44,207 nucleotides of DNA from Syntrophorhabdales bacterium (GCA_035541455.1 DATKNH010000124.1:1-44207), one strand, 5' to 3'. Positions 4,735 to 40,588 are shown, counted from the stretch's first letter. Notes: generated from the sequence alone by a model not told the origin. A program made the numbers and translations.

Positions 4735-4736
4735 CT

Positions 4737-4765
4737 ATTCTCACCGATGTACGCAGAATTGTCAA
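4737..4765 (-). promoter_or_regulatory. sigma-70 type promoter for lipoprotein-truA
   Basis: On the minus strand TTGACA (4760-4765) is followed after 17 bases by GAGAAT (4737-4742). The first hexamer is consensus and the second matches in four of six positions. The predicted transcript would begin near 4730, almost on the ATG codons of the lipoprotein gene, so the leader would be very short or absent. The -35 box overlaps that of a plus-strand promoter toward gyrA. Confidence 0.45.
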
Positions 4766-4788
4766 CGCCTTGGTAGTTGTGGTAAAAT
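4759..4788 (+). promoter_or_regulatory. sigma-70 type promoter toward gyrA
   Basis: TTGTCA (4759-4764), an 18-base spacer and TAAAAT (4783-4788) give a plausible plus-strand promoter. The transcript would start near 4795 and carry a leader of about 128 bases before the gyrA ATG. The -35 shares five bases with the -35 of the minus-strand promoter for the lipoprotein gene, so the two directions may compete for polymerase. Confidence 0.45.
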
Positions 4789-4842
4789 AAGGGCGAAAAT
4801 TAGGTATCCCACCGTAGACTGTCAGCAGGGAGAAGGACACAA

Positions 4843-4922
4843 ATGAACCGGCTGCCGGGCGGACCTTCCGCTTTGCACCGACTGCTGATTGCTGCTTTTG
4901 ACATTGCGAAGGAGGCTTGTGC

Positions 4923-4926
<4 letters not shown>
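4843..4926 (+). CDS. 27-codon upstream ORF coupled to gyrA
   Basis: An ATG at 4843 is preceded by a good ribosome site (agggagaagga, 4827-4837). It opens a 27-residue frame, [20 protein letters not shown] and then IAKEACA, that ends in a TGA at 4924-4926 overlapping the gyrA ATG (4923-4925) as ATGA. It fills most of the leader between the proposed promoter and gyrA. I do not recognise the peptide. It could be a true small gene, a leader peptide that couples gyrA translation to its own, or chance. The exact ATGA overlap together with its own ribosome site makes chance less likely. Confidence 0.4.
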
Positions 4927-7329
<2,403 letters not shown>

Positions 7330-8350: not shown

Positions 8351-9037
8351 ATGAGCAGCATCATTATCGCCTGCAACACTATTGCCGACGAGTTGAACCT
8401 CGCCATAAAAGCTACGGGTGCGACCCATCCGGTTCTCTGGATCGATTCGAAACTCCACACCAAGCCGGAGAAGTTGAGGGAACAGATCCAGTCGGCTATT
8501 TCGAGAATAAGCAACGTGTCGACGATCATCCTCGCCTTTGGTTACTGCGGCAATGCCCTCGTCGGCATCAAGTCGGAGCACGCACGACTTGTCTTTCCCA
8601 AAGTCGAGGACTGTATATCAGTGCTCCTCGGCTCGGCGGAGAGGAGAAGAACGCTCTCCAAGGAGACGTGTAGTTATTACCTCACGAGGGGCTGGCTGGA
8701 ATCTGAGAACAATCTCGCCGAAGAATACACCTATTGCGTTAAAAAATTTGGCCTGCAGCGCGCGCTTAAAGTGATGCACGCCATGCTCAAGAGCTACCGC
8801 CACCTGACATTGATCGACACGGGCGCTTACGACCTTGAGCGGCTTCGACCCAGAACAGAAGAGCTGGCAACAACGCTCGGCCTTTGCCACAAAGTGGTCG
8901 AGGGCTCTCAAAGACTTTTCCAGAAGCTGCTCACTGGACCTTATGACAATGAGTTCGTCCAGATGGAACCTGGCCAGGAAATTACCCTTGACAGCCTCCT
9001 GGAGTCATACCGTCAAGCTCAGGCCAGCCAGATATGA
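8351..9037 (+). CDS. DUF1638 family protein
   Basis: A 228-residue cytoplasmic protein resembling the DUF1638 family. It starts SSIIIACNTIADEL and has the family features FGYCGN near residue 64, the segment RLVFPKVEDCISVLLGS near 79-95, and a conserved TYYLTRGW-like stretch (here SYYLTRGWLE). In other genomes this family often sits near corrinoid proteins and methyltransferases in anaerobes. Its biochemical role is unknown to me. The gene starts 19 bases after gpsA on the same strand. The next gene, a Bug receptor, starts about 90 bases on, so it may be the end of the gyrA-gpsA run. The cysteines in CN, YCGN and EDC could bind metal, but that is speculation. Confidence 0.75.
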   Translation: MSSIIIACNTIADELNLAIKATGATHPVLWIDSKLHTKPEKLREQIQSAISRISNVSTIILAFGYCGNALVGIKSEHARLVFPKVEDCISVLLGSAERRRTLSKETCSYYLTRGWLESENNLAEEYTYCVKKFGLQRALKVMHAMLKSYRHLTLIDTGAYDLERLRPRTEELATTLGLCHKVVEGSQRLFQKLLTGPYDNEFVQMEPGQEITLDSLLESYRQAQASQI

Positions 9038-9126
9038 AAGCAATTCTTTTTTCAGTGCGGTTCGCTGCGCTTAAGCATACGCTGCCCAAACACGCAGGGA
9101 TTAGAATCCATACCGTGAGGTGTTTC

Positions 9127-10110
9127 ATGCGAACGAATCTATATTTGACAGCGCTACTCGGATGCATGCTCTTGGCTGTGCTCGTAACGCCGGCAGGGAG
9201 TCAAAGCGCTTACCCGGCAAAACAAATCGACGTTCTTATCGGATATGGGCCGGGCGGGATTGTCGATGTGTCCGAACGTTTCCTTGCGGGCAAAGCCGAG
9301 AAGATCCTAGGCCAGCCCATGGTGATCACCAATAACGGTGGTGGCGGCAGTTCCGTGGCTGTGGCCATCGTAGCCACGAAGCAGCCGGATGGCTATTTTA
9401 TCGCGGGGTGCGCCAGCACGGGTCTCGTGAGAATTCCGCAATTCAGAACGGTGCCGTACAAATGGGACGACCTCACGCCGATCATGCACTTCGCAACACC
9501 CATCCTCACATCGCTCGTGGTCCGGGCTGATTCGCCCTTTAAGGCGGTGAAGGACCTGGTCGAGTACGCCAGAAAGAATCCCGGGAAAGTGACGTACAGC
9601 ACCACCGGAGTGGGATCACCCATGCACATGGCAATGGAGTACATCGCCAAACAGGAAGGGATAAAATGGACGCACGTGCCCTATCCAGGCACTATGCCCG
9701 CCTTCATGGCACTGCTCGGAAATCATGTCACCGCGCAGGCAGGAGCTGCTGAATGCGTCCCCTACATAAAGGAAGGCAAGGTCAGGCTGCTCGCCACGAT
9801 CAGTGAGAAACGCGTCAAGACCTTTCCGGATGTGCCGACCCTGCGAGAGCTCGGGTACGATACGTTTAATGAAACAGTCTTCATGTTTGCCGCTCCCAAG
9901 GGAACGCCCCAGGCAATCATAGACAAGCTGGACAACGCCTTTCACAAAAGCATGGCCGATCCCGAGTTTAACGGATTGCTCGCAAAACTGGAAATGGAGC
10001 CTTCCTACAGGAACTCGGCCGACACGAAAAAGTACCTTGAAGATGCCCACAGCCGTATCGGAAAGTTGATTCGCGAGCTGAAGATACCAAGAGAGGAAGA
10101 GAAGAAATGA
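9127..10110 (+). CDS. Bug/TctC family periplasmic solute receptor 1
   Basis: A 327-residue extracytoplasmic solute-binding protein of the tripartite tricarboxylate transporter (Bug/TctC) family. A signal peptide covers about the first 26 residues and is followed by AYPAKQIDVLIGYGPGG, the family's typical mature start. Typical internal phrases are KPDGY-like KQPDGYF, VTYSTTGVGSPMHMAMEY, KWTHVPYPGTMPA and FPDVPTLRELGYD. In this family the domain cleft binds carboxylates, including aromatic ones such as terephthalate. An in-frame ATG at 9034 is rejected because it overlaps DUF1638 and would bury the signal peptide. The stop overlaps the next paralogue as ATGA. No tctA or tctB membrane gene is nearby. 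Confidence 0.9.
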   Translation: MRTNLYLTALLGCMLLAVLVTPAGSQSAYPAKQIDVLIGYGPGGIVDVSERFLAGKAEKILGQPMVITNNGGGGSSVAVAIVATKQPDGYFIAGCASTGLVRIPQFRTVPYKWDDLTPIMHFATPILTSLVVRADSPFKAVKDLVEYARKNPGKVTYSTTGVGSPMHMAMEYIAKQEGIKWTHVPYPGTMPAFMALLGNHVTAQAGAAECVPYIKEGKVRLLATISEKRVKTFPDVPTLRELGYDTFNETVFMFAAPKGTPQAIIDKLDNAFHKSMADPEFNGLLAKLEMEPSYRNSADTKKYLEDAHSRIGKLIRELKIPREEEKK

Positions 10111-11084
10111 AACGTTTTCTCACCGTAGTAATCGTATGCCTTATTCCTGTTACCCTCGCAGGTTCGCTCTGGGGCCAGGCGCCCTATCCTGCTAAACCCA
10201 TCGAGCTCCTGATCGGCTGGGCGCCGGGCGCCACAGGGGACTTAACACACAGAATGCTCGCGAGCAAAGCCGAGAAGATACTGGGCCAACCTGTTGTTCC
10301 CTTGAATAACGGCGGCGGCAGCGGCGCGGTGGCTGTGACGCTGGGGGCCAGGAAGCCGGCCGACGGCTATTACCTCATGGGCACTTCAAGCACGGCATTG
10401 GTCAGGGTTCCGCTGTTCAAGACCGTGCCCTACAAGTGGGATGATGTTACACCCATCATGCACTTTGCTGCGCCGGTACTCACCTCGCTAGTCGTAAAAT
10501 CGGATTCCCCCTGGAAGTCTCTCAAAGAGCTTATTGAGTACGCCAAGAAGAACCCGGGGAAGGTCACCTACGCCACGTTAGGCGTCGGGTCGCCGATGCA
10601 CATGGCCATGGAGTATGTCGCCAGGCAGGAGGGTGGAATTAAATGGACCCATGTTCCTTATCAGGGGACCATGCCTGCTTTTATGGCATTGCTCGGAGGC
10701 CACGTATCGGCACAGCTTGGCTCAGGCGAATGCATCCCCTACGTGAAGGACGGTACGCTGAGACTGCTGGCAAACGTGGGTGAGCGGCGGGCCAAGAGTT
10801 TTCCGGATGTACCGACTCTCAAAGAACTGGGATACGATTACTTCAATGAAACGGTCTTTGTGATCGCCGCTCCGAAAGGAACGCCTCAGCCCATTATCGA
10901 CAAGCTTGATAAGACGTTCCATCAGACAATGGCTGACCCGGAATTCGTCAGTCTCGTAACAAAACTCGAATTTGAGCCCGTGTACAGGAACTCAGCCGAC
11001 ACCACTAAATACCTGAGAGAAGCGAACGTACGTATCGGCCGTTTGGTTCAGGAGCTTAAAATACCCAGAGAAGCAGAAAAATAA
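10107..11084 (+). CDS. Bug/TctC family periplasmic solute receptor 2
   Basis: A 325-residue paralogue of the preceding receptor, sharing long stretches by eye (GSPMHMAMEY, the KWTHVPYQGTMPAFMALLG region, FPDVPTLKELGYDYFNETVF), so it arose by tandem duplication. A signal peptide is at residues 1-23, with the mature start QAPYPAKPIELLIGWAPG. The ATGA overlap at 10107-10110 indicates co-translation with receptor 1. It should deliver a carboxylate ligand to a TctAB-type permease, but none is encoded in the window. The stop codon forms part of a long-range inverted repeat with the convergent gene's end. Confidence 0.9.
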   Translation: MKRFLTVVIVCLIPVTLAGSLWGQAPYPAKPIELLIGWAPGATGDLTHRMLASKAEKILGQPVVPLNNGGGSGAVAVTLGARKPADGYYLMGTSSTALVRVPLFKTVPYKWDDVTPIMHFAAPVLTSLVVKSDSPWKSLKELIEYAKKNPGKVTYATLGVGSPMHMAMEYVARQEGGIKWTHVPYQGTMPAFMALLGGHVSAQLGSGECIPYVKDGTLRLLANVGERRAKSFPDVPTLKELGYDYFNETVFVIAAPKGTPQPIIDKLDKTFHQTMADPEFVSLVTKLEFEPVYRNSADTTKYLREANVRIGRLVQELKIPREAEK

Positions 11085-11179
11085 TACCGATCAGCCATAA
11101 AGTGGAGACCGAGGCGCTCCCAAACTTTTCTTCCCGGGTCGCCCAACGAAGGTATGCGCTTTAGGGGTAATCGGTATTA
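11082..11179. repeat. long-range inverted repeat joining two convergent 3' ends, with a repeat-element fragment inside
   Basis: taataccgat (11082-11091) and atcggtatta (11170-11179) are perfect inverted copies. Each includes the stop codon of one of the two convergent receptor genes. Inside lie two words shared with the larger element at 14918-15046: agaccgaggcg (11106-11116) and caacgaaggtatgcgctt (11144-11161). The interval may be a diverged copy of that element acting as a bidirectional 3'-end structure. There is no clear T-run. Confidence 0.5.
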
Positions 11180-12184
11180 CTTGCCCACGTAGAGGCCGAT
11201 TTCTTTGAGTATAGGTACGCCGACTTCTTCTGCGTTGCGTATGGTCTGTCTCACGAACTCGGGTCCGCCGAACTGAGGATCTTCCCCGCCTATCTCAGGA
11301 AGCCGTTTGAACCTGGGATCGTCATAGATCTTTTTTGAGGCAGCGGTAAGATAGCTCTTTATGCTGCCAGGCGTATCCTTACGGACATAGATTGCGACGT
11401 ACGTCATCAGTTTCGCTGCGTCAGGAAAACCAAGCTCAACGATGCACGGCACGTTCGGCTGATCTGCGTACCTCTTCTCGCTGTAAAAGGCCAGCGGCCG
11501 TACCTTTCCCGCCTTGACCTGATCACTCACCGTACCATAAGGAAGACTTGCGGCCTGGATATGTCCTCCGAGCAAGGCCGATAAGGCTTCGGGACTGCCT
11601 TTGTAGGGTACATCCGTTGCTTGAACGCCCGCCTTCTTGAATATGTCAACCGCGATTATGTGGGGCGGGGTCCCCCTGCCGGAATGCGCCCAGTTCAGCT
11701 GTCCCTGATTCTTCTTTCCGTAGCTGAGAAGATCATTGAGGCTCTTCCATGGAGAGTCAGCCCGCACCATCATGGCAAGCCTCCATGCCATGAAATTGGC
11801 TATGGGCTCCAGTTCATTCGGATCGAAGGGTATCTTTTGTGTCTTGGTAGTGATGGCAAAAAACCCCTGGCCGAGAGTTACCAGTTTGTAGCCATCCGGC
11901 TTGGCGCTGATTACCTCGGCCGCAGCCAGACTTCCGCCCGCTCCAGGTTTATTTATCACGGCAATCGGCTGGCCGATGTACGTCGGCGCTATGTCTGCAA
12001 TCAGTCTGGCCATGATATCTATGGAAGCCCCTGCCGTGTAAGGACAGAGAAGCTCAATCGGCTTCACCGGGTAATCTGCCGCGCCCGTGATTGCTGCAGA
12101 AAAAATCAGGACCAGAGAGAGGAATGCTGTTTGTGCTAGGACTCGTTTCTTCGTGCTGAACCTTCGTCTCACGCTCCACCTCAA
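11177..12184 (-). CDS. Bug/TctC family periplasmic solute receptor 3
   Basis: A 335-residue receptor of the Bug/TctC family, clearly more distant from the other two. A basic N-terminus and hydrophobic core form a signal peptide ending near residue 35 (ITGAADYP), followed by VKPIELLCPYTAGASIDI. Family phrases include KPGAGGS, KPDGYKL, VPYKGSPEALSALLGGH and GKVRPLAFYSEKRY. The start codon is TTG at 12182-12184. A GTG at 12170-12172 is an alternative that shortens only the pre-sequence. It is transcribed divergently from the amidohydrolase at 12373. No transport partner is adjacent, so it is an orphan receptor here. Confidence 0.88.
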   Translation of the reverse strand: MRWSVRRRFSTKKRVLAQTAFLSLVLIFSAAITGAADYPVKPIELLCPYTAGASIDIMARLIADIAPTYIGQPIAVINKPGAGGSLAAAEVISAKPDGYKLVTLGQGFFAITTKTQKIPFDPNELEPIANFMAWRLAMMVRADSPWKSLNDLLSYGKKNQGQLNWAHSGRGTPPHIIAVDIFKKAGVQATDVPYKGSPEALSALLGGHIQAASLPYGTVSDQVKAGKVRPLAFYSEKRYADQPNVPCIVELGFPDAAKLMTYVAIYVRKDTPGSIKSYLTAASKKIYDDPRFKRLPEIGGEDPQFGGPEFVRQTIRNAEEVGVPILKEIGLYVGK

Positions 12185-20922: not shown

Positions 20923-22449
20923 CTATCTTGAGGATTCCTTTTCGTACAGTCTCAGAAGCTCGCTTTTTAGAACCTTTCCCCGCTCACTCCTAGGCAGCGC
21001 CGCCGTGAACAGTATCTTTTTCGGTACCTTGAAATCGGGAAGCGTCCTGCTGCAATGAGCGGCAATCTCATCCGCGCAGAGCTCGCATCCCTCCTTTTTT
21101 ACCACGAAACTGACTACCTCTTCTCCGTAGATGCTGTCCGGCACGCCTATGGTTGCTGCCTCACTCACTCCCTCGTGTTCCATTATGCGGGAGGTGATTT
21201 CCATGGGCGATATATTGATACCGCCCCTGATGATGAGATCTTTTTTTCTTCCGGTGATGAAGATATATCCATCCACATCCACATAACCAAGGTCTCCCGT
21301 GGGGAAACCCTCCCGTGGAAATGCCTCAATCGTACCATCCTCCTTCGAATAGCACAAGCCCATAGCTCTGCCCTTGACGATCATTTCCCCCGCTTCACCG
21401 GGCTTGCATTCCTGCCCCTGCTCATTGAGGAAGCAGATTTCCTTATGCTTGAGAGGCAGACCCACTGAACCCAATTTGCGTCTTGCCGGCGGGTTCCCCA
21501 CCATCCAGCCCGCCTCAGACATACCCATCATTTGTTGTATAGGAATGTGATACGTCTGCTCGAACCTAACATGGCTCTCCACGCTCAAAGGCGCCGAGCT
21601 GGAGGTGATGAACTTCAAATCCGGGACCTCTTCCTTCCTCAAAGCTACCGGTTCATTGATCAGCATGTTGATCACTGCAGGCACACCGGACGAAATAGTT
21701 ATCTTATGAACTTTGAGCCATTCAGGGAAGCGGCTTCTCGAAAATTTTCTGGCAAGGAAGAGTGTAGCGCCCTTGAGCATGGTGGAGAGGATGGTTAACA
21801 GCTGTGCCGAAGCCCAGTTATACGCGCGGTATTCAAGAACCCTATCCGACTCGGTCATGCCCGTTCGGTCTGCTATCTCGTCGACCATATAAAAGAGACC
21901 TTCCCGTGAGATGTGAATACCCTTGGGAAGCGTCATGGTGCCCGACGTATAGACGATAAGGGCAACATCACTGCTCTTAGCGACGCACTTCACGGGCACC
22001 GGCCTGCGGGTTTCAAGAAGACGAAAGAAATCATTTTCGGACACCTTCTCGCCTTTATCGGAAAAGCGTATCCATTCACCCGCGTATCGTCCGGTGTCCA
22101 GTTTCAGACCGCTGTCGTAGAAAACAAATCTGGGTCTTACCATGCTGATGATGCGATAAAGGTTTTCTTGACTCTCTTCGAAAAAGATGGGGTTCACTAC
22201 GGCACCGTATTTCAAGACGCCGTAGTAGATGATCATTGTCTCTATGGAGTTCTTGCCGATGATGGTTACTCGATCACTTGCCTTCGTCTTTCGTTCGCGC
22301 AGAAACTGGCCGACCCGATCGCAGAACTCATTCATCCGGCCGTACGTAATGGACTTCCCCTGATCCAGGCTTTCTATGTACTTCTTCTCGGGGATCGTGC
22401 GGCCGCGTTCTTCGATGATGACAGCCCAGTCTTTATACTCTTCGTTCAC
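20923..22449 (-). CDS. AMP-forming acyl-CoA/aryl-CoA ligase
   Basis: A 508-residue ANL-superfamily ligase, expected to activate a carboxylic acid with ATP and CoA. The P-loop is YTSGTMTLPKG (usually YTSGTTGxPKG). MGMSEAGWM corresponds to the A5 motif. GDLGYVDVDGYIFITGRKKDLIIRGG is present, and the catalytic Lys of the C-terminal domain is in RSERGKVLKSEL. The likely start is GTG 22447-22449, one base after the UbiD-A stop. The frame extends upstream to 22623 but only across UbiD-A coding sequence. Adjacent to UbiD-A, it suggests the pair acts on one substrate, for instance CoA activation followed by decarboxylation as in anaerobic phthalate catabolism. That link is inference. Confidence 0.88.
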   Translation of the reverse strand: MNEEYKDWAVIIEERGRTIPEKKYIESLDQGKSITYGRMNEFCDRVGQFLRERKTKASDRVTIIGKNSIETMIIYYGVLKYGAVVNPIFFEESQENLYRIISMVRPRFVFYDSGLKLDTGRYAGEWIRFSDKGEKVSENDFFRLLETRRPVPVKCVAKSSDVALIVYTSGTMTLPKGIHISREGLFYMVDEIADRTGMTESDRVLEYRAYNWASAQLLTILSTMLKGATLFLARKFSRSRFPEWLKVHKITISSGVPAVINMLINEPVALRKEEVPDLKFITSSSAPLSVESHVRFEQTYHIPIQQMMGMSEAGWMVGNPPARRKLGSVGLPLKHKEICFLNEQGQECKPGEAGEMIVKGRAMGLCYSKEDGTIEAFPREGFPTGDLGYVDVDGYIFITGRKKDLIIRGGINISPMEITSRIMEHEGVSEAATIGVPDSIYGEEVVSFVVKKEGCELCADEIAAHCSRTLPDFKVPKKILFTAALPRSERGKVLKSELLRLYEKESSR

Positions 22450-22450
22450 T

Positions 22451-23983
22451 CTAAAAACCTGTCTTCGCAAAGAGCTTTCCGTACTCCGGCTGAGCTGCTT
22501 TTGCCTTTGCAATCTGATCATCCGTAAACCATTTCTTGAGGTCAACGACGTCGATCGGATAATGCGCCTTCTGAAAGGCGTCCACATATCTGAAAGGAAC
22601 CGTTGCGTCCAGTGCGATGGCACCGGAGAACCTGATGTTTGTCTGAGTCCAGTCCTTCTCTCCTGCTGAACTTCTCTCTGCAGGCTGGAATGTCTGGCCT
22701 GCCCCGCCCGGGGCGACGATCATAATACCCTGCGCTGCATCAACTCTAGTCGCAATCGCCCACATCATGTCATCCATGCTGTAGATGTCGATATCCGGGT
22801 CTACTGCCATGGCCAGCCGCGCTCCAATGGAACAGGAGAGCGCCGTGGAAAGGATATTCTTTACGTATCCCTCATCCCGCTGTCTGCGCTTCTTCACCTG
22901 GAAAATCACACCACCCCAGTCAGGAATGCACATCGGGATATTGGTGTCTACGGTCAGTCCTGGACAGACGCGCTCTGCCAGCTCAAAAAAAGAGGCTGCC
23001 CTGACCATGGTGTCGATATTATGATCGTCGTAGCTGTGAACCGCGAGCGGATAATAGATAGGCCTGTCCTTCCGGTAGGTGATCGCGGTCACTACAAATT
23101 TATACGTCCTGTAGGCCTTCCCCATATATCCCGACCATTCCGGATGGAACGGATGAACCCCCTGCTTCCCATCCTTCTCTGCAAGCTCGCTTTCCCAGAC
23201 TTTACTCGTGGTGTCCAGGTACCCCTCGATCACGTACTCGGCCTGGGCGATTGAATAGGCATCGATCGTCTTCGCCTTTACTATGTCCACGGGAAATCCC
23301 TGCACGGCGCCCGCAATACCCAGTTCATCGCATCCCGGGGGTAGTATCGTGTAGACAAAACCCGCACCGGCCATCAACGTGCACGCAGCGGGTACGCCCA
23401 TGTTGATGGTCAATGGAATCGGCTCTTTTCTGTAAAACTTGGACGCGATCATATCCGTGTGGGAGCCGGGTGAGATCTGAAAAGTCGAGTAGTTGGGCCA
23501 CCTGAAATGCATCCTGTTGTAGCTTATGTGCGTACCTCCCCAAAAATATTTTCCCGTGGCCAGCGTGTTGCCTCCGCCGAGCGTCCTTCCCGGATCACTG
23601 GGTGTGTGCTTGATCATGGGGATGATAGGCCAGACATCGATGTCCTTGTCTATGACCACTTCCTGGCACGGCGCGTCCGTAACCACTTTCGGCGCGAGAG
23701 GACGGCGGATCGCCTCAATAATGCGAAACTTGAAAGTTCTTTCGGTCCCCGCGTCAAAGAGCTCTGCAACGAGGTTGCCATCGGCGAAAAGGTTCGTGAA
23801 GAGCCTTCCATTGGGATAGCCTTTCACGTTGTTGAAGAGGATCGGCAACCCCCCGTCCAGAAGCTTTTGAATGCCGGTCATTTCCAGTTCCGGGTTTATC
23901 TCGACATCCGTCTCCAGGAGCTTGCCTTTTGCTTTCAGGTACTCGATGGTTGATCTGAGATTGCTGAGATGCACGTTTGACAT
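22451..23983 (-). CDS. UbiD family decarboxylase A
   Basis: A 510-residue UbiD-like protein, the longest of four in the window. UbiD enzymes use prenylated FMN to decarboxylate or carboxylate aromatic and unsaturated acids. The family N-terminus, TDAPCQEVV near residue 103 and ISPGSH near 170 are present, and the conserved Arg seems to be Arg157 (SYNRMHF). In the catalytic loop, usually EGPxGE, I read H-P-F-H-P-E: the final Glu282 is kept, but the first Glu is replaced by His277. An insertion of about 10 residues precedes this loop. A good ribosome site (ggagg) fits the ATG. It overlaps nothing and is followed after one base by the ligase. It may be a divergent specificity such as an aryl-CoA decarboxylase. 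Confidence 0.88.
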   Translation of the reverse strand: MSNVHLSNLRSTIEYLKAKGKLLETDVEINPELEMTGIQKLLDGGLPILFNNVKGYPNGRLFTNLFADGNLVAELFDAGTERTFKFRIIEAIRRPLAPKVVTDAPCQEVVIDKDIDVWPIIPMIKHTPSDPGRTLGGGNTLATGKYFWGGTHISYNRMHFRWPNYSTFQISPGSHTDMIASKFYRKEPIPLTINMGVPAACTLMAGAGFVYTILPPGCDELGIAGAVQGFPVDIVKAKTIDAYSIAQAEYVIEGYLDTTSKVWESELAEKDGKQGVHPFHPEWSGYMGKAYRTYKFVVTAITYRKDRPIYYPLAVHSYDDHNIDTMVRAASFFELAERVCPGLTVDTNIPMCIPDWGGVIFQVKKRRQRDEGYVKNILSTALSCSIGARLAMAVDPDIDIYSMDDMMWAIATRVDAAQGIMIVAPGGAGQTFQPAERSSAGEKDWTQTNIRFSGAIALDATVPFRYVDAFQKAHYPIDVVDLKKWFTDDQIAKAKAAQPEYGKLFAKTGF

Positions 23984-24001
23984 ACCGACCTCCCGATATT
24001 T

Positions 24002-24694
24002 TTATGCTTTGAGTCGCTTGTTTACATCAAGTGTATGCTCGTACATAACCTTGGCAGCTTTTTCCGGCTCACGATTCTTTATGTGGCGGGTGAGTCGCTT
24101 GTGCGCCTCCAGAATCGCCCGATGATCCTCAATGCTCAGACTCATCTTCCTGAACTCGTTGTTGAAGAGGAGTGCCACCGCATCGATCAAAAGAGAGATC
24201 ATCTTGTTCTTAGAAGCTTTTGCAAGCGCCTGGTGGAAGTCTATAGTGACGATGATGGGAATCTTGCCCGCCGTAATCGCTTTCTCTCTCACGCGGTTCA
24301 TCTCTTCGAGCAGGGCGACGTCTTCTTCCGTTCGATTCTCAGCTGCCAACCGCGCTATACCCGGTTCAGTAAGCGACCTGAACTGCAGGATCTCTTCAAA
24401 GGATACCCGCTCCATGAGTATGATGTCGTGAAGCCTGTTTGCGAGAGACCTGACACCCGCTCCCGCCACATAGGCTCCACCTGCTGCTCCGGGTCTTACC
24501 ACAACGAATCCTGATTCCTCCAGACTCCTCAGGGCTTCGCGCAACGACCCCCTGCTCACGTTGAACACCTCCATCAACTCTTTCTCCGGAGGCAGTTTAT
24601 CGCCCGACCTGTAGTCTCCTTTGATGATGCTTTGCTTTATCTGTTCGAGGACGGAATCGGAGACCCTCCCGCGTTTCACCTGCTTGAATTTCAT
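24002..24694 (-). CDS. GntR family (FCD/FadR-type) transcriptional regulator
   Basis: A 230-residue regulator. The N-terminal winged helix (residues 9-75) has the GntR signature GDYRSGDKLPPEKELMEVFN and the recognition helix VSRGSLREALRSLEESG. The C-terminal FCD domain has the metal/ligand triad in DFHQALAKASKN, DHRAILEAHKR and YEHTLDVN. FCD regulators usually sense a carboxylic acid, often the pathway substrate. Placed inside the cluster between UbiD-B and UbiD-A, it is the obvious candidate to control it. The TTGTTGACAACAA palindrome at 29225-29237 resembles an operator of this class. It starts with a good ribosome site (ggagg). Confidence 0.9.
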   Translation of the reverse strand: MKFKQVKRGRVSDSVLEQIKQSIIKGDYRSGDKLPPEKELMEVFNVSRGSLREALRSLEESGFVVVRPGAAGGAYVAGAGVRSLANRLHDIILMERVSFEEILQFRSLTEPGIARLAAENRTEEDVALLEEMNRVREKAITAGKIPIIVTIDFHQALAKASKNKMISLLIDAVALLFNNEFRKMSLSIEDHRAILEAHKRLTRHIKNREPEKAAKVMYEHTLDVNKRLKA

Positions 24695-24727
24695 GTCTGC
24701 CTCCGCTCCCCAGCTCCCATCACACAG

Positions 24728-26170
24728 CTACTTTAGAAGATGGCCCCACTTTTCCACCGTTTTCTTTCTCACTTCCGGACTGGGCATGTTGACAATCGGG
24801 AACCTGTCCCTCCACTCGAACGGGCGGCAGGCATCGATGATGGCACGCGAGTTCCAGAGCGCTCCCTTTGCCTTGTCGTCGGGACTGATGCGCGGATCGA
24901 GCGGCGTGCTCCACGCCCGGTGGATTATATCGATAGAGGTTGCAGGGTCGGAGCGCGTGCACATCGCCCAGACAACCTCTTCCAGGTTGGTGACGTCAAT
25001 GTCGTCATCCACGACGACCACGTAGCGGCCGCAGTAGGCCCCCACGTGACACTGGGACGCCACGTGACCCACTTGCGTGGCGTGGCCTGGATAGCGCTGT
25101 TTTATGGAGACCGCCAGAAACAGCCTTGCACCTCCTGCTTCGTGGCACCATGCGCCGACAACATCGGGCACTCCTGCTTTTTCCAGCTCCTCCTTCAAGA
25201 GAGGGGAACGCATGAATGAGCGGTAAAAGGCTAGCTCATCCGGCGGTCTATTGGGAGGGCTGCCAAGGATGATGGGATCATTCCGATGGTAGATCGCCTT
25301 GATCTCTATCCTGGGCTCTTTGCGCGATGCGCTGGCGTAGTAGCCCGTCCACTCGCCGAAGGGCCCTTCTTCCTGAACGTCATCAAAGTGGGCGAAGCCT
25401 TCGAGCACAATCTCTGCCCGTGCGGGAATGGGAAGTCCCGTGTACTTGCCTTTGATCACCTCAAACGGCGCGCCACGGACAGCCCCCGCCCAATCAAATT
25501 CGCACATCCCGTACGGTAGCTCACTCGCACCAGCGAGGTAGAGGAGAGGATCGCCTCCAACCACTACCACGACAGGACACGGCTGTTTCCGCGCAAAGTA
25601 CTTGTCCCTATGGATGCGGCCGTGCTTGCCTGGCGATATGTAGAAACCGACATGGTTCTTGTCCTGGACCTGCACACGATAGGTCCCCACGTTGATCCAG
25701 CCCTCGTCAGGGTCTCTCGTGATGTTATAGCTCCCTGTGCCAATGTACCTGCCGCCATCCTCCTCGTGCCACTTGGGTGTGGGAAACTTCAACACGTCTA
25801 CCGCGTCTCCTTCGAGCACATTCTCCATGACCGGTCCGCTCTCCACGTATACAGGCGGCAGTGGCTTCTGTCCTTCTGTCCTTTTGTAGAGCTCGGTGCT
25901 CAGCTCAAATTTCGAGAGGCCCTTCTTCAGGCCGAAGGTGATAGCCAGACGGTTATTACTGAGCAGTGCGTTCGTCAACACCCTGAAGCCCTTTGGATAC
26001 CCCGGGATGTTGTCAAAAACTGCGGCAGGGGCCTGCGGCGTGTGATTCAAGAGTTCGGTGGCCATACCGATATCCTCCTGCCAGGTCGCACCATCGACAG
26101 TTCTGAGTTCTCCGGTATCTTCAACAACTTTGAGCCAGTCACGAAGGTCTTTGTATTGCACGTTGGACAT
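24728..26170 (-). CDS. UbiD family decarboxylase B
   Basis: A 480-residue UbiD protein with a complete catalytic set by eye: Arg165 in VGTYRVQV, then Glu268 and Glu273 in EEGPFGEWTGYY. The metal/cofactor His is in SPGKHGRIH near residue 183, and an acidic DDDIDVTN motif follows near 390. It is therefore the most canonical prFMN-dependent decarboxylase of the minus-strand cluster. The start chosen is ATG 26168-26170 (MSNVQYKDL), five bases after ggaggag. A GTG two codons upstream would overlap the ribosome site. It follows the DASS transporter after 105 bases and precedes gntR by 33. Substrate unknown. Confidence 0.92.
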   Translation of the reverse strand: MSNVQYKDLRDWLKVVEDTGELRTVDGATWQEDIGMATELLNHTPQAPAAVFDNIPGYPKGFRVLTNALLSNNRLAITFGLKKGLSKFELSTELYKRTEGQKPLPPVYVESGPVMENVLEGDAVDVLKFPTPKWHEEDGGRYIGTGSYNITRDPDEGWINVGTYRVQVQDKNHVGFYISPGKHGRIHRDKYFARKQPCPVVVVVGGDPLLYLAGASELPYGMCEFDWAGAVRGAPFEVIKGKYTGLPIPARAEIVLEGFAHFDDVQEEGPFGEWTGYYASASRKEPRIEIKAIYHRNDPIILGSPPNRPPDELAFYRSFMRSPLLKEELEKAGVPDVVGAWCHEAGGARLFLAVSIKQRYPGHATQVGHVASQCHVGAYCGRYVVVVDDDIDVTNLEEVVWAMCTRSDPATSIDIIHRAWSTPLDPRISPDDKAKGALWNSRAIIDACRPFEWRDRFPIVNMPSPEVRKKTVEKWGHLLK

Positions 26171-26219
26171 AATCACTCCTCCCTCGGTATCAGTGTATAG
26201 TGCACGGTAAGCAGCATCT

Positions 26220-26249
26220 AGTTGTTTGCCTCAATTTTTAAACACAACT
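26220..26249. repeat. small inverted repeat between DASS and UbiD-B genes
   Basis: agttgttt (26220-26227) and aaacacaact (26240-26249) form an imperfect stem (one bulged base) around a 12-base loop. It lies in the 105-base gap, the largest between adjacent genes from UbiD-C to the ligase. It may be a processing or attenuation site, or an operator with TTGT/ACAA half-sites. No U-run follows on the minus strand. Confidence 0.25.
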
Positions 26250-26275
26250 CGCGTCTCTCCTTCAGCCCTGCCTCA

Positions 26276-27712
26276 TCACCGGAAGGTGAGGCCGAGAAGA
26301 GGCCAGTACCATGGGACAATCAAAAGCAGCAGGATTGACTCAACAAAGAAAATGGCCAGCCCGAACTTGAAGAGATCCTTGGTGGTGAAATAGCCGAACG
26401 CATAGCCGACGGCCAGCACAGCGGACTGGTAGACAAACACCTTACCACCGGCCGCATACCCCCAGAGCATGCCGAGTGTGAGCGGGTTGAACCCATCTTT
26501 GAGGCAGAACTGCATCAGTGCAGGCATCGTGGCGCTGATCATGGAAGGCTCGTTAGCAAGGAAGAGATGAAAGAGGTTGGCATACCAGTAGAGGAGCATC
26601 CCCGCCATAACCGACGCAGAATGTAATACCGGTGTCATCCATTTAAACAGGGCGGCTGTAAGCGTTTTCAGGATCTCTGTATCGGCCATCACGTTGCCGA
26701 GACACATAGCTGCGCCTATGAAGACGACTATGGGAAAGTTGGCTTTGCTGAAATCATCTTTCTTCATTGCGCCTACGAGCGGCAGGCAGGCGAAGAGACC
26801 ACCCACCACGCCGATGATCGAGGGGCTAATGTGGTGCCAGTGATCGGTTGCCCACAGTATCGTCGCCACCGACATTATAATTGTGGCTTTTATCTCTTTT
26901 GCGGACATCGATCCCATTTTCTGTAGTTCGGCCCGGCAGTACTCCTGTCCCCCCTCCAGCGTCTTTTTTTCCGGAGGAAAAAGTTTCAGTATGATCCACC
27001 AACTGGCGAGAATCGTGAGCAGGGTAATGGGCAGGTAAGCGACCAACCACAAGCCGTAGGAGACCTTCACCTTGCCCACCGATTCGATGAGCCCGCGCGA
27101 CAGGATCGTGGCTGCTCCGGCGAGTATAACCTTATCGAAGAGTCCTGACTGGTACGTCATCGCCAGGATGAGGCCCCGGCCGATATTGCTCTCCTTGGCC
27201 AGCCCGTAGCTCTGGATCAGCCCTATCGCAATGGTGCAGAGCACAAGGGTCTTCGCCAGCCCAGAGGGAATTATAAACGTCAGCAGAAGGTTGAGCACCA
27301 TCATTCCGGCTAAAATGGATGAGTAGTTGCTCCCGAGACGGCACACCATGTTGTAGGCTATTCTCTTGGCCAGCCCTGTTGATTCGGCCATGATCCCCAT
27401 TAGTAGAACGCCGAGAATGAACCACGGCGTATCGCTGTGGAACCCTGAAAATGCCTTGGCCACCGGTATACCGGCAAAGACCCAGTAGAGCCAGCAGCCC
27501 AGAAGTCCGGTGACGCCAAGGGGAACAGGTTCAGCGATGAACATGGCGATCACGAAGACCGTGACGCTGAGGGCCCTGCGCCCTCCTTCGGTCGGGGTAA
27601 AGGGTGCCAAATACGTGATCACCCCCACTGCGATGCAGATCAGGAAATAGAGAAAACGTTTCACTTCAGGATTCATCTTCGACGTGTCCGCGACTGCCTT
27701 TGCTTCACTCAT
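26276..27712 (-). CDS. DASS/SLC13 family anion transporter
   Basis: A 478-residue membrane protein with about eleven to twelve hydrophobic segments, belonging to the divalent-anion:sodium symporter family (CitT/SLC13-like). Typical regions are FVIAMFIAEPVPLGVTGLLGC near residue 55 and the pseudo-repeated re-entrant hairpins. In those hairpins the usual Ser-Asn-Thr signature is not evident: the first reads IPSGLAKT and the second FLANEPSMISATMP, so the substrate or coupling ion may differ. Its place between UbiD-C and UbiD-B suggests import of a carboxylated substrate or export of a product. The ribosome site aggaggag precedes the ATG. Confidence 0.87.
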   Translation of the reverse strand: MSEAKAVADTSKMNPEVKRFLYFLICIAVGVITYLAPFTPTEGGRRALSVTVFVIAMFIAEPVPLGVTGLLGCWLYWVFAGIPVAKAFSGFHSDTPWFILGVLLMGIMAESTGLAKRIAYNMVCRLGSNYSSILAGMMVLNLLLTFIIPSGLAKTLVLCTIAIGLIQSYGLAKESNIGRGLILAMTYQSGLFDKVILAGAATILSRGLIESVGKVKVSYGLWLVAYLPITLLTILASWWIILKLFPPEKKTLEGGQEYCRAELQKMGSMSAKEIKATIIMSVATILWATDHWHHISPSIIGVVGGLFACLPLVGAMKKDDFSKANFPIVVFIGAAMCLGNVMADTEILKTLTAALFKWMTPVLHSASVMAGMLLYWYANLFHLFLANEPSMISATMPALMQFCLKDGFNPLTLGMLWGYAAGGKVFVYQSAVLAVGYAFGYFTTKDLFKFGLAIFFVESILLLLIVPWYWPLLGLTFR

Positions 27713-27764
27713 GCTTCTCCTCCTTTACCACCGCGTATTCATCAAAGCGCCCCAGTCAGTAACG

Positions 27765-29144
27765 CTAGAACCCCAGTTCTCTGAGCCTCTTGATCGCATC
27801 TTCGGGAATGCGGTTCCTTTCCGGATAGTTTGCAACATCTTCATGATGCGTAGCATCGATGATGCAGACCGCGTCGCCGATCCAGCTGCGGAAGCTCTGA
27901 ACCTTCGGAATGATGATCACGTCCTTGTCCCATCTTGCCTGCGTTGCGACCGCCCACATCACCTCTTTCTGGTTGAACACATCGATGTCGTCGTCGACGA
28001 CTATGGCAAGTTTCAGATTCGGCTGCTCGGCGAAGGCAATCATGGCAGCCACGGTCACGTCACGGTACGTCCTCTTCTTCACAGCGATATGCGCCTGGAA
28101 TCGCCCCATCGCGGAATCAGGCAGATGTACCGCCGTCACTTCGGGCACGACCTTCTTCATCGCCCAATAGACAGTTCCTTCCTTTGGGAGACCGCCCAGG
28201 ATGATGTGCTCGGCGTGCCCCGGCATAACGCCCTGCATGATAGGGTTATTTCTGAAGCAGACCGCTGTCACGTCGATCACAGGAACAAGCATGCGCTCCT
28301 GATAGTGACCGGAAATCTCGCCGAACGGATTCTGATAATCCCTTACCCCTGGCTGTATCATTCCTTCAATGATGATCTCGGCATCCGCAGGGATCAGAAA
28401 ATCCTTACCCAGGGTAGCCGAAGGGGTAAGGCGCAACGCCTCTCCCAAGAAGGCTGCTATCGTCTTATAATCGTGATTTCCGTAGGGTAGCAATGCGCAG
28501 GATCCCAGGTAAAAGGCAGGGTGATGCCCCAGAACAACAGCCACAGGGGCCGGCTCATTCATCCGTTCGTATTCTGCTATTATGCGTGCGAGATGATGAT
28601 GGCCGTGGGTGGAGATACTCATTCTTCTCGGCCCATAAACAAGGTTCTTTGTAGGAGTAACATCGTAAAAGTCCCCTGATTTTGCCTTCATGAGACAGGC
28701 CATGACAAAGTAGGGTCCCACATCTTTCTCGTGGTAACGGGCCGCGGGAAGAGTCGTGACATCAGTCTTGTCGCCGGTAAGCACGTTCTGAAGAACCGGA
28801 GCATCCGACTGCTTGATTATATCGAGCGGGCCCTCTTTCTTTTCTATCTCGCCGAAGCGAATACCGAGCCCCATCTGGTTGTTGGAAGGATCCTCACCGA
28901 TAGCCATCGCACAGAGAGACCTGGTCACGAATAGGTTGTAGGCCAGCGGAAAAGGTGATCTCTCCCCCTTAAGATTCTTCACGTTTTCAAAGACGATAAC
29001 CGGTTCCCGGTTCTTCTCCTCAAGCAGTTTTACGAAGGCTGCAAGTTCATGCCTGTCAGGATCAAGCTGCTCTTTCACGTGAAGCATCTTCTCCGGGTAC
29101 TTTTCTTCCAGCATCTTAATGAAACCGCTCAGGCTCCTGGCCAC
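27765..29144 (-). CDS. UbiD family decarboxylase C (divergent active site)
   Basis: A 459-residue UbiD homologue and first gene of the minus-strand cluster. Family features are FENVKNLKG near residue 52, VLTGDKTDVTTLPA near 121, the DDDIDVFNQKEVMWAVATQ block near 388 and the C-terminal IIDATHHEDV. In the catalytic loop I read DYQNPFGE: Glu276 is kept, but the earlier Glu of EGPxGE is replaced by Gln271. The usual GxYRV segment is replaced by LVYGPRRMSIS. This is a recurring branch of UbiD-like proteins and not obviously a pseudogene, but its chemistry may differ. The start is GTG 29142-29144 with ggaggagg six bases upstream. It has its own promoter at 29168-29195. Confidence 0.87.
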   Translation of the reverse strand: MARSLSGFIKMLEEKYPEKMLHVKEQLDPDRHELAAFVKLLEEKNREPVIVFENVKNLKGERSPFPLAYNLFVTRSLCAMAIGEDPSNNQMGLGIRFGEIEKKEGPLDIIKQSDAPVLQNVLTGDKTDVTTLPAARYHEKDVGPYFVMACLMKAKSGDFYDVTPTKNLVYGPRRMSISTHGHHHLARIIAEYERMNEPAPVAVVLGHHPAFYLGSCALLPYGNHDYKTIAAFLGEALRLTPSATLGKDFLIPADAEIIIEGMIQPGVRDYQNPFGEISGHYQERMLVPVIDVTAVCFRNNPIMQGVMPGHAEHIILGGLPKEGTVYWAMKKVVPEVTAVHLPDSAMGRFQAHIAVKKRTYRDVTVAAMIAFAEQPNLKLAIVVDDDIDVFNQKEVMWAVATQARWDKDVIIIPKVQSFRSWIGDAVCIIDATHHEDVANYPERNRIPEDAIKRLRELGF

Positions 29145-30931: not shown

Positions 30932-32371
30932 ATGTCCATCGAAAAACAGGATTTGAGGGCAGTATTGCATAAGATCGAGCAGGAACGAGAACTTGTCCGG
31001 GTGAAGCGGTCCGTTGATCCCCTGATCGAGATTCCTGCCGTTGTAAAGGCCCTTGCCAGGCTTCCTAAAATTCCAGCGCTCCTCTTTGAAAGCGTCAAGA
31101 AATATCCTGGTGTCCGGGCGTGCGGTGCGTTCTTCGGGGATAGAAGCCGGGTCCTGCGCTCTCTGGATTTGCCGATGGAACCCATCGCGCTCAACAGCTA
31201 TATTGTGGAAGCGCTGGAGAAACCTCTGGCACCACGGCTTGTCACAAACGCGCCATGCAAAGAGAACGTACGGAAGTCTCCTGTTGATCTCGGCAAGATC
31301 ATCTTTCCCACAAAAGGCGCGTCGCAATCAAAGCATCTTTACTATCACACGGTTGTCTTTACCAAACATCCAAGAACTGGCCGCATAAACATGGGCATGT
31401 ACCGGGTGACCCTGCAGCCGCGGGGCAAGGTCACGGTCAATCTGAGAGTAACCCAGCATGGCGGCATGCATCTTCAGGTGGCCAAAGAGATCAACGTTCC
31501 CCTGCAGGTGGCGCTCTGTCTCGGGGTCCACCCGTCTATCTATGAAGCCGCCACATCAGAATTGCCGTACGGCTACGATGAGGTCGGTCTGGCCGGAGCC
31601 CTGGTGCGCGAGCCTGTGGAGATGGTCAAAGCGGAAACGGTCGACATGCTCGTTCCCGCACACGCCGAGGTAGTCGTCGAGGGAGAAATCCGCCCGCCCT
31701 ACAAACTGGGCAACGAAGGCCCGTGGCCGGAATACCTCGGCTACCTGGGCATGAACATAAACCCGCCGCTGATGGATGTTACTGCTATAACGTTTCGCAA
31801 TAATCCGGTCGTCCCGATCTTCGTGCCCGGCGCCATCCCGAACGTGGTTTCCATAGGCAACGAGGCGCAGCTTCTGCGTACGCTGCGGAGTTTTGCCGGA
31901 GAATTCGTTGTCGATGCCGCATTCACTCACGGGGCTCGCCGTCACCACGCTGTCATTAAAGTGCGGAAGACCCATCCGCATCACGAGGGCTACCAGTTGA
32001 ACGTTGCCATGGCAGCTTTTGGTCATGGATCATCTACCGCCCTCGACCAGGTGACCATAGTGGACGAAGATATCGACATCCGCAACTATCGGGAGGTTGA
32101 CTGGGCAGTCTCCACGCGGTGCAACTTTTCCAAACAGGTTCACATTCTCCCGGAGGCGCGCTCCCACCAGAATAATCCTATTGCAGGCGTGCGGGAGCTC
32201 TCAGAGGAGCCGATCATAACGGGTAAGATGATTGTCGACGCCACTATCCCGTGGGCGTACAGGGTAGCGGAGAAATCACCGGGCATCACCTTCTTCACCA
32301 GGAGTAGTTGGCCTGAGGTGGACCTGGGCACCTACCTGCAGCCTGAGGATAAGAAGCGATGGTTAAAGTGA
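30932..32371 (+). CDS. UbiD family decarboxylase D
   Basis: A 479-residue UbiD homologue with a full catalytic set by eye: Arg158 in MGMYRVTL, Glu262 and Glu267 in NEGPWPEYLGY, and QHGGMH near residue 175 for the cofactor metal site. The loop carries Trp-Pro in place of Phe-Gly, like some hydroxyaryl decarboxylases. TNAPCKENV near 105 parallels TDAPCQEVV of UbiD-A, so those two may be closest. The start ATG 30932 is preceded by gaggaggcgggag. Nineteen in-frame codons upstream lack support. Eighteen bases separate it from the second amidohydrolase, so the two are almost certainly co-transcribed and may act in one pathway. Confidence 0.92.
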   Translation: MSIEKQDLRAVLHKIEQERELVRVKRSVDPLIEIPAVVKALARLPKIPALLFESVKKYPGVRACGAFFGDRSRVLRSLDLPMEPIALNSYIVEALEKPLAPRLVTNAPCKENVRKSPVDLGKIIFPTKGASQSKHLYYHTVVFTKHPRTGRINMGMYRVTLQPRGKVTVNLRVTQHGGMHLQVAKEINVPLQVALCLGVHPSIYEAATSELPYGYDEVGLAGALVREPVEMVKAETVDMLVPAHAEVVVEGEIRPPYKLGNEGPWPEYLGYLGMNINPPLMDVTAITFRNNPVVPIFVPGAIPNVVSIGNEAQLLRTLRSFAGEFVVDAAFTHGARRHHAVIKVRKTHPHHEGYQLNVAMAAFGHGSSTALDQVTIVDEDIDIRNYREVDWAVSTRCNFSKQVHILPEARSHQNNPIAGVRELSEEPIITGKMIVDATIPWAYRVAEKSPGITFFTRSSWPEVDLGTYLQPEDKKRWLK

Positions 32372-38652: not shown

Positions 38653-40588
38653 TAGTCCGAAGTTCCTTACCTCGTAATGCAGTATTTCCTTGTGAGAGAA
38701 GGAGTTTTAGAAAAGAGGAGTTTCCGTTTACTGGCTACAGCCTGAGGAGTTCAAATGCCCGCGCTTGAAGAGGTGTGAGGTCGGTTACCCGCAAGAAAGA
38801 CGGTTGAGCGGGATCGGTACCGATCCTCACGCGATGACGGCACCGGGTGGCCAGTTCGGCGAGCAGGGTCGAGAAGCTCTGGACGGGAAGACCATCCGGG
38901 GTAAGGCCCGTCCTCTTCTTCCTCAGGGCAGAAGGAGACGCTTTCGCCGGCCGCACCGCGTCTCTCATCGTTCTTTTCTCCGGCAGTTCTTCGTCATCAA
39001 AAAGGAGCGGCGCCAGAGACTTCCGCATATGCCACTCCACGTAATAGGCGAGTAGGCAGAGAAAAATGTGGGCTTTGACGTGCGCTTCGGTCCTGTGCCA
39101 GATGGGCCGTATGAGCAGATCGAGCCCTTTTAAGCTCCGGAAGGCGCGCTCGACGTGCGCAAGGTTCTTATACGTGCGGACCGCATCCTCGGGGGAGAGG
39201 GTTTCTTGCGGTTCACTCGTGCGGATGACGTAGATGCCGTCTAAGGCTTCCTCTCGCTGGATCGACAGCTCATTCCGGGCAAAGGAGAACGTTCCCTCGC
39301 CGATCGTCACCTTGAAGTGCTTGCCCACCTTGAACCGGCCGAGCACGCCCCCCACCTTCTTGCCGATCTCGGCCTTGTCGAGCGGCGTGCGGGTGCGCCG
39401 TGTCACCTGACGGGCGATGCGAGAGAGTTCACCCTCGGTCGCGGCAAGAAGCTCTTGTCGCTTTCTCTTCCGTTCTTCCGCCAAAAGCGGATTGAAGCAG
39501 GCGATGAGCCGCTCGTCGGGATAGTCGTCGGATACGATCTCGGCAAGATCCGTCTGGTCGAAGAGCGACAGCTGAAGGCTTTCCCCCTCGACCAAGTTCC
39601 GGATGGCGCGGGAGCGCAGTGCCGAGATCCAGCCGATGCCCGGGTGGGCCTTCAGGGTATCGATCTGCGTATTCGTGAGCATGCCCCGGTCGCCGACCAA
39701 AACAAGGCGGTTCAGCCCGAAACGGTTTTTCAGTGTTTGCACCTGATCGGGAACCGTGGTGGGATCACCGGTGTTGCCGGGATAGACGCTGACGGCGACT
39801 GGACACCCTTGCTGATCGGTGAGCACTCCGTAGACGATGATCGGCTTTCCTTTCTCTCCGTCCCGGTCATGGCCGAACAGCGCCAAGGGGCAGGTCCTGC
39901 CTTCATAGTAGCTGCTCGTGACATCGTAGAGCACGGATGCTCTTTCTGCGAGGTGCTTCGAAGCCAGCTTCTTTTCAATCATCTCCTGGCGGGCAAGCAG
40001 CCAGTCCATCGCACGGTAGAGATCGTCCTCATCGGTATCGGTGCAAGAAAGCTCTTCCGCAAGCGTCGTGGTGTTTATGAGCCGCGCCGTGGCGAGTTTC
40101 GAGGAAGGATGGAGGAGACGCTCTGCCAGCATGGCGATGACGAGATCACGCTCGCGGCTTCTCTTGGATGCGATGACGCTATCAAGGCCGATTCTTCGTA
40201 TGGTTCCCAAAACCGCCTCCACGTGGCCGTGGGCCAGGGAACGTTCGATATGGAAGGCTTCTTTCGGTGCCACAGCGGTTTCACCCTTCAAAACGCGCCT
40301 GAGTGCTTCAACCTTCTCTTCCGGCCAGTCCGTGAGATTCGCAACGGTCCGCCGCTTGACCTTTTTCCCTTCACGCCACGCTTCCCTAAGCAGAACAGCC
40401 GGCCGTGAGTTGCGGTTCGGCACCACATCGATGTACATGAGCACATCATACCACCACACTACACTACTGTCAACTACTAAATGACATATTACATGGGCAC
40501 AAATGGAAGAGCCCACTTTCAAGCTTTCCGGCTACCGGCAAGGGAAAGAGACCATTTTTATCGTGATTTCACATGGAACTTCGGACTA
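38653..40588 (-). mobile_element. IS1634-like insertion sequence B (about 1.94 kb)
   Basis: Perfect 14-base inverted repeats, tagtccgaagttcc at 38653-38666 and its reverse complement at 40575-40588, enclose one transposase gene. The flanks (ttttcat and gacgtca) show no obvious target duplication. The ends are related in sequence to those of insertion sequence A (both begin TAG-C/T-CC, then AA-C/G-TTCC), fitting two members of one family. The element sits between serS and a flavoprotein gene without visibly breaking a recognised gene. A short frame, MFVIVRARSA..., runs into its left edge. Confidence 0.85.
38735..40438 (-). CDS. IS1634 family DDE transposase
   Basis: A 567-residue transposase. 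The start chosen, ATG 40436-40438 (MYIDVVPNRNSRPAVLL), is the usual N-terminus in this family. The frame is open to 40522 but that extension has no family sequence. The DDE residues are in VLYDVTSSYYEGR (Asp), LVGDRGML (Asp) and HVERAFRSLKGLDL (Glu), followed by IRPIWHR and AHIFLCLLAYYVEW. The protein is complete with no frameshift. It is clearly distinct from the transposase at 1029, sharing only motif-level similarity by eye, so the two elements are different species and not copies. Confidence 0.9.
   Translation of the reverse strand: MYIDVVPNRNSRPAVLLREAWREGKKVKRRTVANLTDWPEEKVEALRRVLKGETAVAPKEAFHIERSLAHGHVEAVLGTIRRIGLDSVIASKRSRERDLVIAMLAERLLHPSSKLATARLINTTTLAEELSCTDTDEDDLYRAMDWLLARQEMIEKKLASKHLAERASVLYDVTSSYYEGRTCPLALFGHDRDGEKGKPIIVYGVLTDQQGCPVAVSVYPGNTGDPTTVPDQVQTLKNRFGLNRLVLVGDRGMLTNTQIDTLKAHPGIGWISALRSRAIRNLVEGESLQLSLFDQTDLAEIVSDDYPDERLIACFNPLLAEERKRKRQELLAATEGELSRIARQVTRRTRTPLDKAEIGKKVGGVLGRFKVGKHFKVTIGEGTFSFARNELSIQREEALDGIYVIRTSEPQETLSPEDAVRTYKNLAHVERAFRSLKGLDLLIRPIWHRTEAHVKAHIFLCLLAYYVEWHMRKSLAPLLFDDEELPEKRTMRDAVRPAKASPSALRKKRTGLTPDGLPVQSFSTLLAELATRCRHRVRIGTDPAQPSFLRVTDLTPLQARAFELLRL

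What the first reader, a model, noticed from the sequence alone, without database searches (positions are those of the whole stretch)
22451..29144. UbiD-A and UbiD-C have altered catalytic loops while B and D keep the canonical one
In prFMN enzymes an Arg-Glu-Glu set does the chemistry. My manual alignment gives Arg165-Glu268-Glu273 for B and Arg158-Glu262-Glu267 for D. In A the first Glu is His277, and in C it is Gln271 with the Arg segment also rearranged. Two canonical and two variant homologues in one locus suggest either heteromeric complexes with non-catalytic members or different reactions, for example on CoA thioesters.
Basis: partly seen in the sequence, partly recalled or inferred. 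Interest (0 to 1): 0.6.

Follow-up and report, generated by a model that had tools for sequence, protein, structure and literature searches.

The report
UbiD enzyme subfamily with rewired catalysis
Of four related carbon-dioxide-removing enzymes in this uncultured anaerobe's gene cluster, one that looked altered is in fact a normal phthaloyl-CoA-type decarboxylase, but the other belongs to a strictly conserved branch of the family in which the key catalytic arginine and a glutamate are replaced by lysine and glutamine.

Summary
H277 lies in an insertion that phthaloyl-CoA decarboxylase (PCD) also has, and it varies among orthologues. A is PCD-like (48% identical in the structure alignment, Z 44) and sits beside a CoA ligase. 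Its real oddity is a His at the Fdc1 N168 metal-ligand position, shared with PCD. C (27765-29144, -) truly lacks the Arg and first Glu: K166 and Q271, with D161, D225 and a His-rich segment, while E276 is kept. This is not decay: 34 of 34 sequences of a single-origin clade, found in six families of the phylum, have the same Lys and Gln, against 50 of 50 other UbiDs with Arg and Glu; dN/dS is about 0.02. In Fdc1, R173K is dead and E277Q nearly so. In 16 of 18 C-type loci outside the window no second UbiD is nearby, so an obligate heteromer is unlikely. Best reading: a distinct UbiD subfamily with a rewired K-Q-E active site and unknown substrate.

The parts
27765..29144 (-). UbiD-C: member of the K-Q-E UbiD subfamily (459 aa)
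   Evidence: Pfam UbiD N/middle/C all above cut-off; UbiD fold, Z 50 to HmfF; clade of 34 K/Q sequences; below the NCBIfam TIGR00148 cut-off, 227.6 against 244.85
28647..28649 (-). C K166 codon (AAG), position of Fdc1 R173
28332..28334 (-). C Q271 codon (CAG), position of Fdc1 E277
28317..28319 (-). C E276 codon (GAG), position of Fdc1 E282 (kept)
28593..28664 (-). C segment D161 to H184: D161 (Fdc1 N168), K166, H180, H182, H183, H184 (Fdc1 H191)
   Evidence: SAHxHHHL-type motif in nearly all K/Q sequences; H182-H184 in 34/34
22451..23983 (-). UbiD-A: phthaloyl-CoA-decarboxylase-like enzyme with intact R157-E264-E282 (510 aa)
   Evidence: 553 bits to PCD 8oz5/8pmk; Z 44, 48% identity; E264 and R157 invariant
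23192..23194 (-). A E264 codon, the true first catalytic Glu
23153..23155 (-).
23528..23530 (-). A H152 codon, at the Fdc1 N168 metal-ligand position; His also in PCD
24728..26176 (-). UbiD-B: canonical R-E-E UbiD, nearest solved relative phenazine-1-carboxylate decarboxylase 7pda
30932..32371 (+). UbiD-D: canonical R-E-E UbiD, nearest solved relative HmfF 6h6v
20923..22449 (-). AMP-forming CoA ligase directly downstream of A (GTG start at 22449 inferred; the mechanical ORF reaches 22623)
   Evidence: AMP-binding Pfam hits; orthologue directly after A in 7 loci of the same order
24002..24694 (-). GntR/FCD regulator between B and A
26276..27712 (-). DASS-family anion transporter between C and B
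   Evidence: same order in the sister genome
29309..30031 (+). class II aldolase/adducin-family protein (3,4-dihydroxyphthalate-decarboxylase-like), divergent from C
   Evidence: a class II aldolase C-terminus also abuts the C-type gene in G339

Best explanation
The locus holds three canonical prFMN-type UbiDs (A, B, D) and one member (C) of a distinct UbiD subfamily. A most likely decarboxylates a phthaloyl-CoA-type thioester made by the adjacent ligase, with R157-E264-E282 as catalytic set (shown: homology, residues, synteny; inferred: substrate). C most likely is a working enzyme that still binds prFMN in the UbiD fold but uses Lys166-Gln271-Glu276 and an Asp/His/Asp metal site instead of Arg-Glu-Glu and Asn/His/Glu. 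Shown: predicted fold, residues, single origin, strict conservation, purifying selection. Inferred: that it binds prFMN, that E276 remains the acid-base, and that the loss of the Arg-Glu pair changes cofactor maturation or the reaction/substrate class rather than merely killing the enzyme.
For: A: PCD hit at 5e-165, Z 44 over 482 residues, E264 invariant with the 15-residue register, A-ligase synteny, UbiX and BamA in the genome. C: 34/34 K and Q against 50/50 R and E; of the four columns that differ cleanly between the groups, three are active-site positions 173, 233, 277; single origin with the trait columns removed, SH-aLRT 99-100; dN/dS about 0.02 though dS is saturated; full UbiD fold, pLDDT 92, Z 50 to HmfF; homologues at 46-53% identity widespread in families of one class; E276, F274, H184 invariant.
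Against: Fdc1 R173K showed no activity and E277Q at most 0.3 per min (PMC5818171), so a plain decarboxylase is hard to defend and an inactive role is possible. prFMN binding of C is not tested. The substrate is unknown and gene neighbours of C differ between lineages.
Confidence: 0.6

Rival explanations
1. C is a non-catalytic or regulatory subunit that forms a heteromer with the canonical UbiD-B, as several UbiD-like subunits do in naphthalene carboxylase or phenylphosphate carboxylase.
For: B and C are on one strand with only the DASS gene between, in both genomes of the genus; multi-UbiD carboxylase complexes are known (PMC12016498; PMC10570749); G079 also has a canonical UbiD near its C-type gene.
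Against: 16 of 18 C-type neighbourhoods outside the window have no second UbiD. A non-catalytic subunit is not expected to keep the same Lys and Gln in 34 of 34 sequences.
Confidence: 0.15
2. C is an ordinary prFMN decarboxylase whose network simply tolerates Lys and Gln; the chemistry is the usual one.
For: The acid-base Glu (E276) and the metal His (H184) are kept; Asp and Thr at positions 168/170 are also seen in active AroY, and E233D in R-E-E relatives.
Against: Fdc1 R173K is inactive and E277Q nearly so. No sequence typed combines K with E or R with Q, which suggests a coupled change.
Confidence: 0.2
3. One reading: both A and C have lost the first catalytic Glu.
For: An ungapped reading of E-x4-E puts H277 in A.
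Against: E264 fills the position by alignment, register and invariance; H277 is not conserved; PCD, reported active, has the same layout.
Confidence: 0.04

Closest known systems
Phthaloyl-CoA decarboxylase (PCD; PDB 8oz5, 8pmk)
   Same: A: 50% sequence identity, same insertion between the two Glu, same H-x4-R segment, CoA ligase beside it
   Different: A sits beside an AMP-forming ligase rather than the CoA-transferase system described for denitrifiers (PMC9516798); substrate isomer not known
Isophthalyl-CoA decarboxylase of Syntrophorhabdus aromaticivorans
   Same: Ligase plus UbiD decarboxylase in a syntrophic aromatic degrader of a related group (PMC9516798)
HmfF, furandicarboxylate decarboxylase (PDB 6h6v, 6h6x)
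   Same: C: closest solved fold (Z 50, 30-31% identity)
   Different: HmfF has N, R, E, E at the positions where C has D, K, D, Q
Ferulic acid decarboxylase Fdc1
   Same: Reference for prFMN catalysis; same fold and retained acid-base Glu
   Different: Laboratory variants R173K and E277Q are inactive or nearly so (PMC5818171), whereas the C clade has both together
Phenylphosphate and naphthalene carboxylases (multi-UbiD complexes)
   Same: Several UbiD homologues in one cluster
   Different: No match above the curated cut-offs for phenylphosphate carboxylase alpha or beta; C-type genes usually stand alone

Membership tests
UbiD fold family (Pfam PF20695/PF01977/PF20696), protein C | three UbiD domains over the gathering score and the UbiD fold | tested here: met
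   39.4, 151.5, 82.3 bits; predicted model Z 50.1 to 6h6x
Canonical prFMN (de)carboxylase, protein C | Arg at Fdc1 173 and acidic residue at 277 | tested here: not met
   K166 and Q271
Canonical prFMN (de)carboxylase, protein C | Glu/Asp at Fdc1 282 and His at 191 | tested here: met
   E276, H184, 34/34 in the clade
Canonical prFMN (de)carboxylase, protein C | binds prFMN and decarboxylates | not testable with these tools
   needs biochemistry
NCBIfam TIGR00148 UbiD family decarboxylase, protein C | score over the curated cut-off 244.85 | tested here: not met
   227.6 bits
Phthaloyl-CoA decarboxylase, protein A | full-length homology closest to PCD among solved UbiDs | tested here: met
   553 bits against 154 for the next family; top of fold list
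Phthaloyl-CoA decarboxylase, protein A | intact Arg-Glu-Glu set and His at the N168 position | tested here: met
   R157, E264, E282, H152
Phthaloyl-CoA decarboxylase, protein A | activity on phthaloyl-CoA | not testable with these tools
   substrate isomer unknown
Phenylphosphate carboxylase beta, protein B | score over TIGR02724 cut-off 468.95 | tested here: not met
   301.4 bits
Heteromeric UbiD complex (B with C) | C-type gene regularly beside a catalytic UbiD | tested here: not met
   2 of 18 loci outside the window, one of them in the same genus

The most novel reading that the evidence does not exclude
The K-Q-E subfamily catalyses a reaction other than prFMN-iminium (de)carboxylation, for example one using a reduced or otherwise matured prFMN, or a metal-based reaction at the Asp/His-rich site, on a non-aromatic acid.
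Probability: 0.25. Interest if true: 0.75.

Novelty: new variant of a known kind. Interest (0 to 1): 0.5.

Why it matters
The Arg-Glu-Glu network is taken as the hallmark of UbiD catalysis and cofactor maturation. A clade that has fixed the two substitutions known to disable Fdc1, with matching changes at the metal site, is a natural experiment on which parts of the network are needed for prFMN maturation and which for decarboxylation. It also warns that automated annotation as 'UbiD family decarboxylase' hides a group with unproven chemistry. For A, the finding removes a false anomaly and points to a real one: the Asn-to-His change at the metal position shared with PCD, an enzyme reported as Fe2+-dependent.

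Tried and rejected
Rejected: loss of the first Glu in A (register, invariance and PCD layout say E264). Rejected: C as a decaying pseudogene (open frame, dN/dS about 0.02, 34 conserved sequences). One alignment run put Q instead of E264 in the Fdc1 E277 column for A and for PCD too; the other runs and the spacing overrule it.

Full report
Setting. The window lies in a 3.9 Mb, 173-contig genome with 15 UbiD genes, four of them here. A same-genus genome (G001; the MAG titled Syntrophobacterales bacterium Chersky.21_67 carries the same genes, L028) shares the cluster, and other relatives of the same order include Syntrophorhabdus MAGs. The genome encodes one strong UbiX and a BamA-type ring-opening hydrolase over its curated cut-off, so anaerobic aromatic degradation through benzoyl-CoA is likely. 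Gene order on the minus strand is C, DASS transporter, B, GntR regulator, A, AMP-forming CoA ligase, then ABC transporter genes; on the plus strand a class II aldolase-family gene, D and an amidohydrolase.

A is canonical. That spacing fails in A because an insertion follows the first Glu. With Fdc1, AroY, HmfF, PCD and 15 homologues aligned, E264 takes the Fdc1 E277 column and E282 the E282 column. E264, R157, H175 and E282 are invariant among 18 sequences that include canonical UbiDs. The distance from the conserved strand Glu (Fdc1 E262) to the first catalytic residue is 15 in Fdc1, AroY, HmfF, PCD, A, B and C. The AlphaFold2 model of A (mean pLDDT 79, about 57-74 around the insertion) has a strand at 250-263 ending just before E264, then a short helix 266-271 in the insertion. 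H277 is His only in the genus of the window and Tyr, Phe, Val or Thr elsewhere. One alignment run put a Gln in the E277 column for A and also for PCD; it is overruled by the other four runs and the spacing. A is 50% identical to PCD and its model is closest to 8pmk with Z 44. In seven loci of the same order the A orthologue is followed by an orthologue of the window's ligase, then genes that read as TRAP-type transport and, where the locus reaches far enough, one that reads as UbiX (transport and UbiX judged from sequence starts, not scanned). The nearest plasmid relative is the UbiD next to UbiX on Aromatoleum aromaticum EbN1 plasmid 2, 95% identical to the PCD chain. The true deviation in A is H152 at the Fdc1 N168 position, shared with PCD and the closer relatives but not with the 46-49% group, which mostly has Asn. 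PCD is titled a K+- and Fe2+-dependent enzyme (reference in PMC9516798); that a His-His-Glu site explains the iron preference is my inference.

C is really altered, and conserved. C has D161, T163, K166, H183, H184, D225, Q271 and E276 where Fdc1 has N168, S170, R173, Q190, H191, E233, E277 and E282. A same-genus orthologue (86%) keeps all of these. Searches with C found matches in 5 of 395 genomes drawn across the phylum at E 1e-75 and in 33 of 145 genomes of one class at E 1e-80; not every match is C-type and not every one was typed. Of the sequences typed, 34 have K and Q and three more distant ones have K with Cys or Val; 50 other UbiDs all have R and E. Sampling is biased to relatives of A and C, so these counts are not frequencies for the whole family; nine further UbiDs from plasmids are also R and E. 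Only four alignment columns separate the groups cleanly, and three are active-site positions 173, 233 and 277. With the trait columns removed from the tree, the K group has one origin (SH-aLRT 100) and the K/Q group within it one (99) (quick search, long branches flagged). dN/dS of C within the genus is about 0.02, with dS saturated. The model of C is a complete UbiD fold (pLDDT 92; Z 50 to HmfF).

What the changes should do. In Fdc1, R173K had no detectable activity, E277Q at most 0.3 per min, and R173 variants disturb oxidative maturation (PMC5818171). C has both changes at once, so by analogy it should not work as an Fdc-like decarboxylase. Yet identical substitutions across sequences only about 50% alike argue for a retained, changed function rather than decay. 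N168D adds and E277Q removes one negative charge, so the changes may compensate; this is inference.

Heteromer or not. Eighteen C-type neighbourhoods outside the window were read: no other UbiD in the stretch in 16 (some cut by contig ends), one in G079, and B and A in the sister genome. In one family the C-type gene commonly follows an SDR gene and an aldehyde dehydrogenase gene, in five loci with split transketolase genes too; in another it lies near cutA and thiC (cutA, thiC and purC named by eye). A class II aldolase-family gene neighbours C in the window, its sister genome and, as a fragment at a contig edge, in G339. These neighbours suggest oxygenated acids or aldehydes rather than phthalates as the metabolic context of C; that is a lead only. 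Among 60 relatives of the window's genome, C-type genes were found only in the window's genus, which suggests acquisition from outside.

Verdict. A is ordinary for a PCD-like enzyme. C is a member of a distinct UbiD subfamily with a rewired active site, a new variant of a known kind. Its cofactor state and reaction remain to be measured.

Noticed in passing
window 1029-2807 (+) and 38735-40522 (-): Two different transposase-like ORFs flank the aromatic gene region about 36 kb apart (judged by eye from the sequence, not scanned).
   Followed up: no
window 9034-12184: Three neighbouring genes that read as tripartite-tricarboxylate-type solute receptors, two of them in tandem, next to the UbiD cluster (by eye).
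   Followed up: no
window 20923-22623 (-): The mechanical ligase ORF overlaps the end of A; a GTG at 22449 just past A's stop is a better start.
   Followed up: partly
   Followed up: no
L048, L093, L096, L097, L099: Conserved run SDR, split transketolase N and C halves, often aldehyde dehydrogenase, then the K/Q UbiD: an uncharacterised pathway.
   Followed up: partly
L045, L046, L047: A sister branch with Lys at the Arg position and Cys or Val at the first Glu position.
   Followed up: partly
L036 (Desulfotomaculaceae MAG) 4506-5915: A gene 85% identical to A in a contig labelled as a Firmicute, with Arg in place of the metal His; transfer or mis-binning.
   Followed up: no
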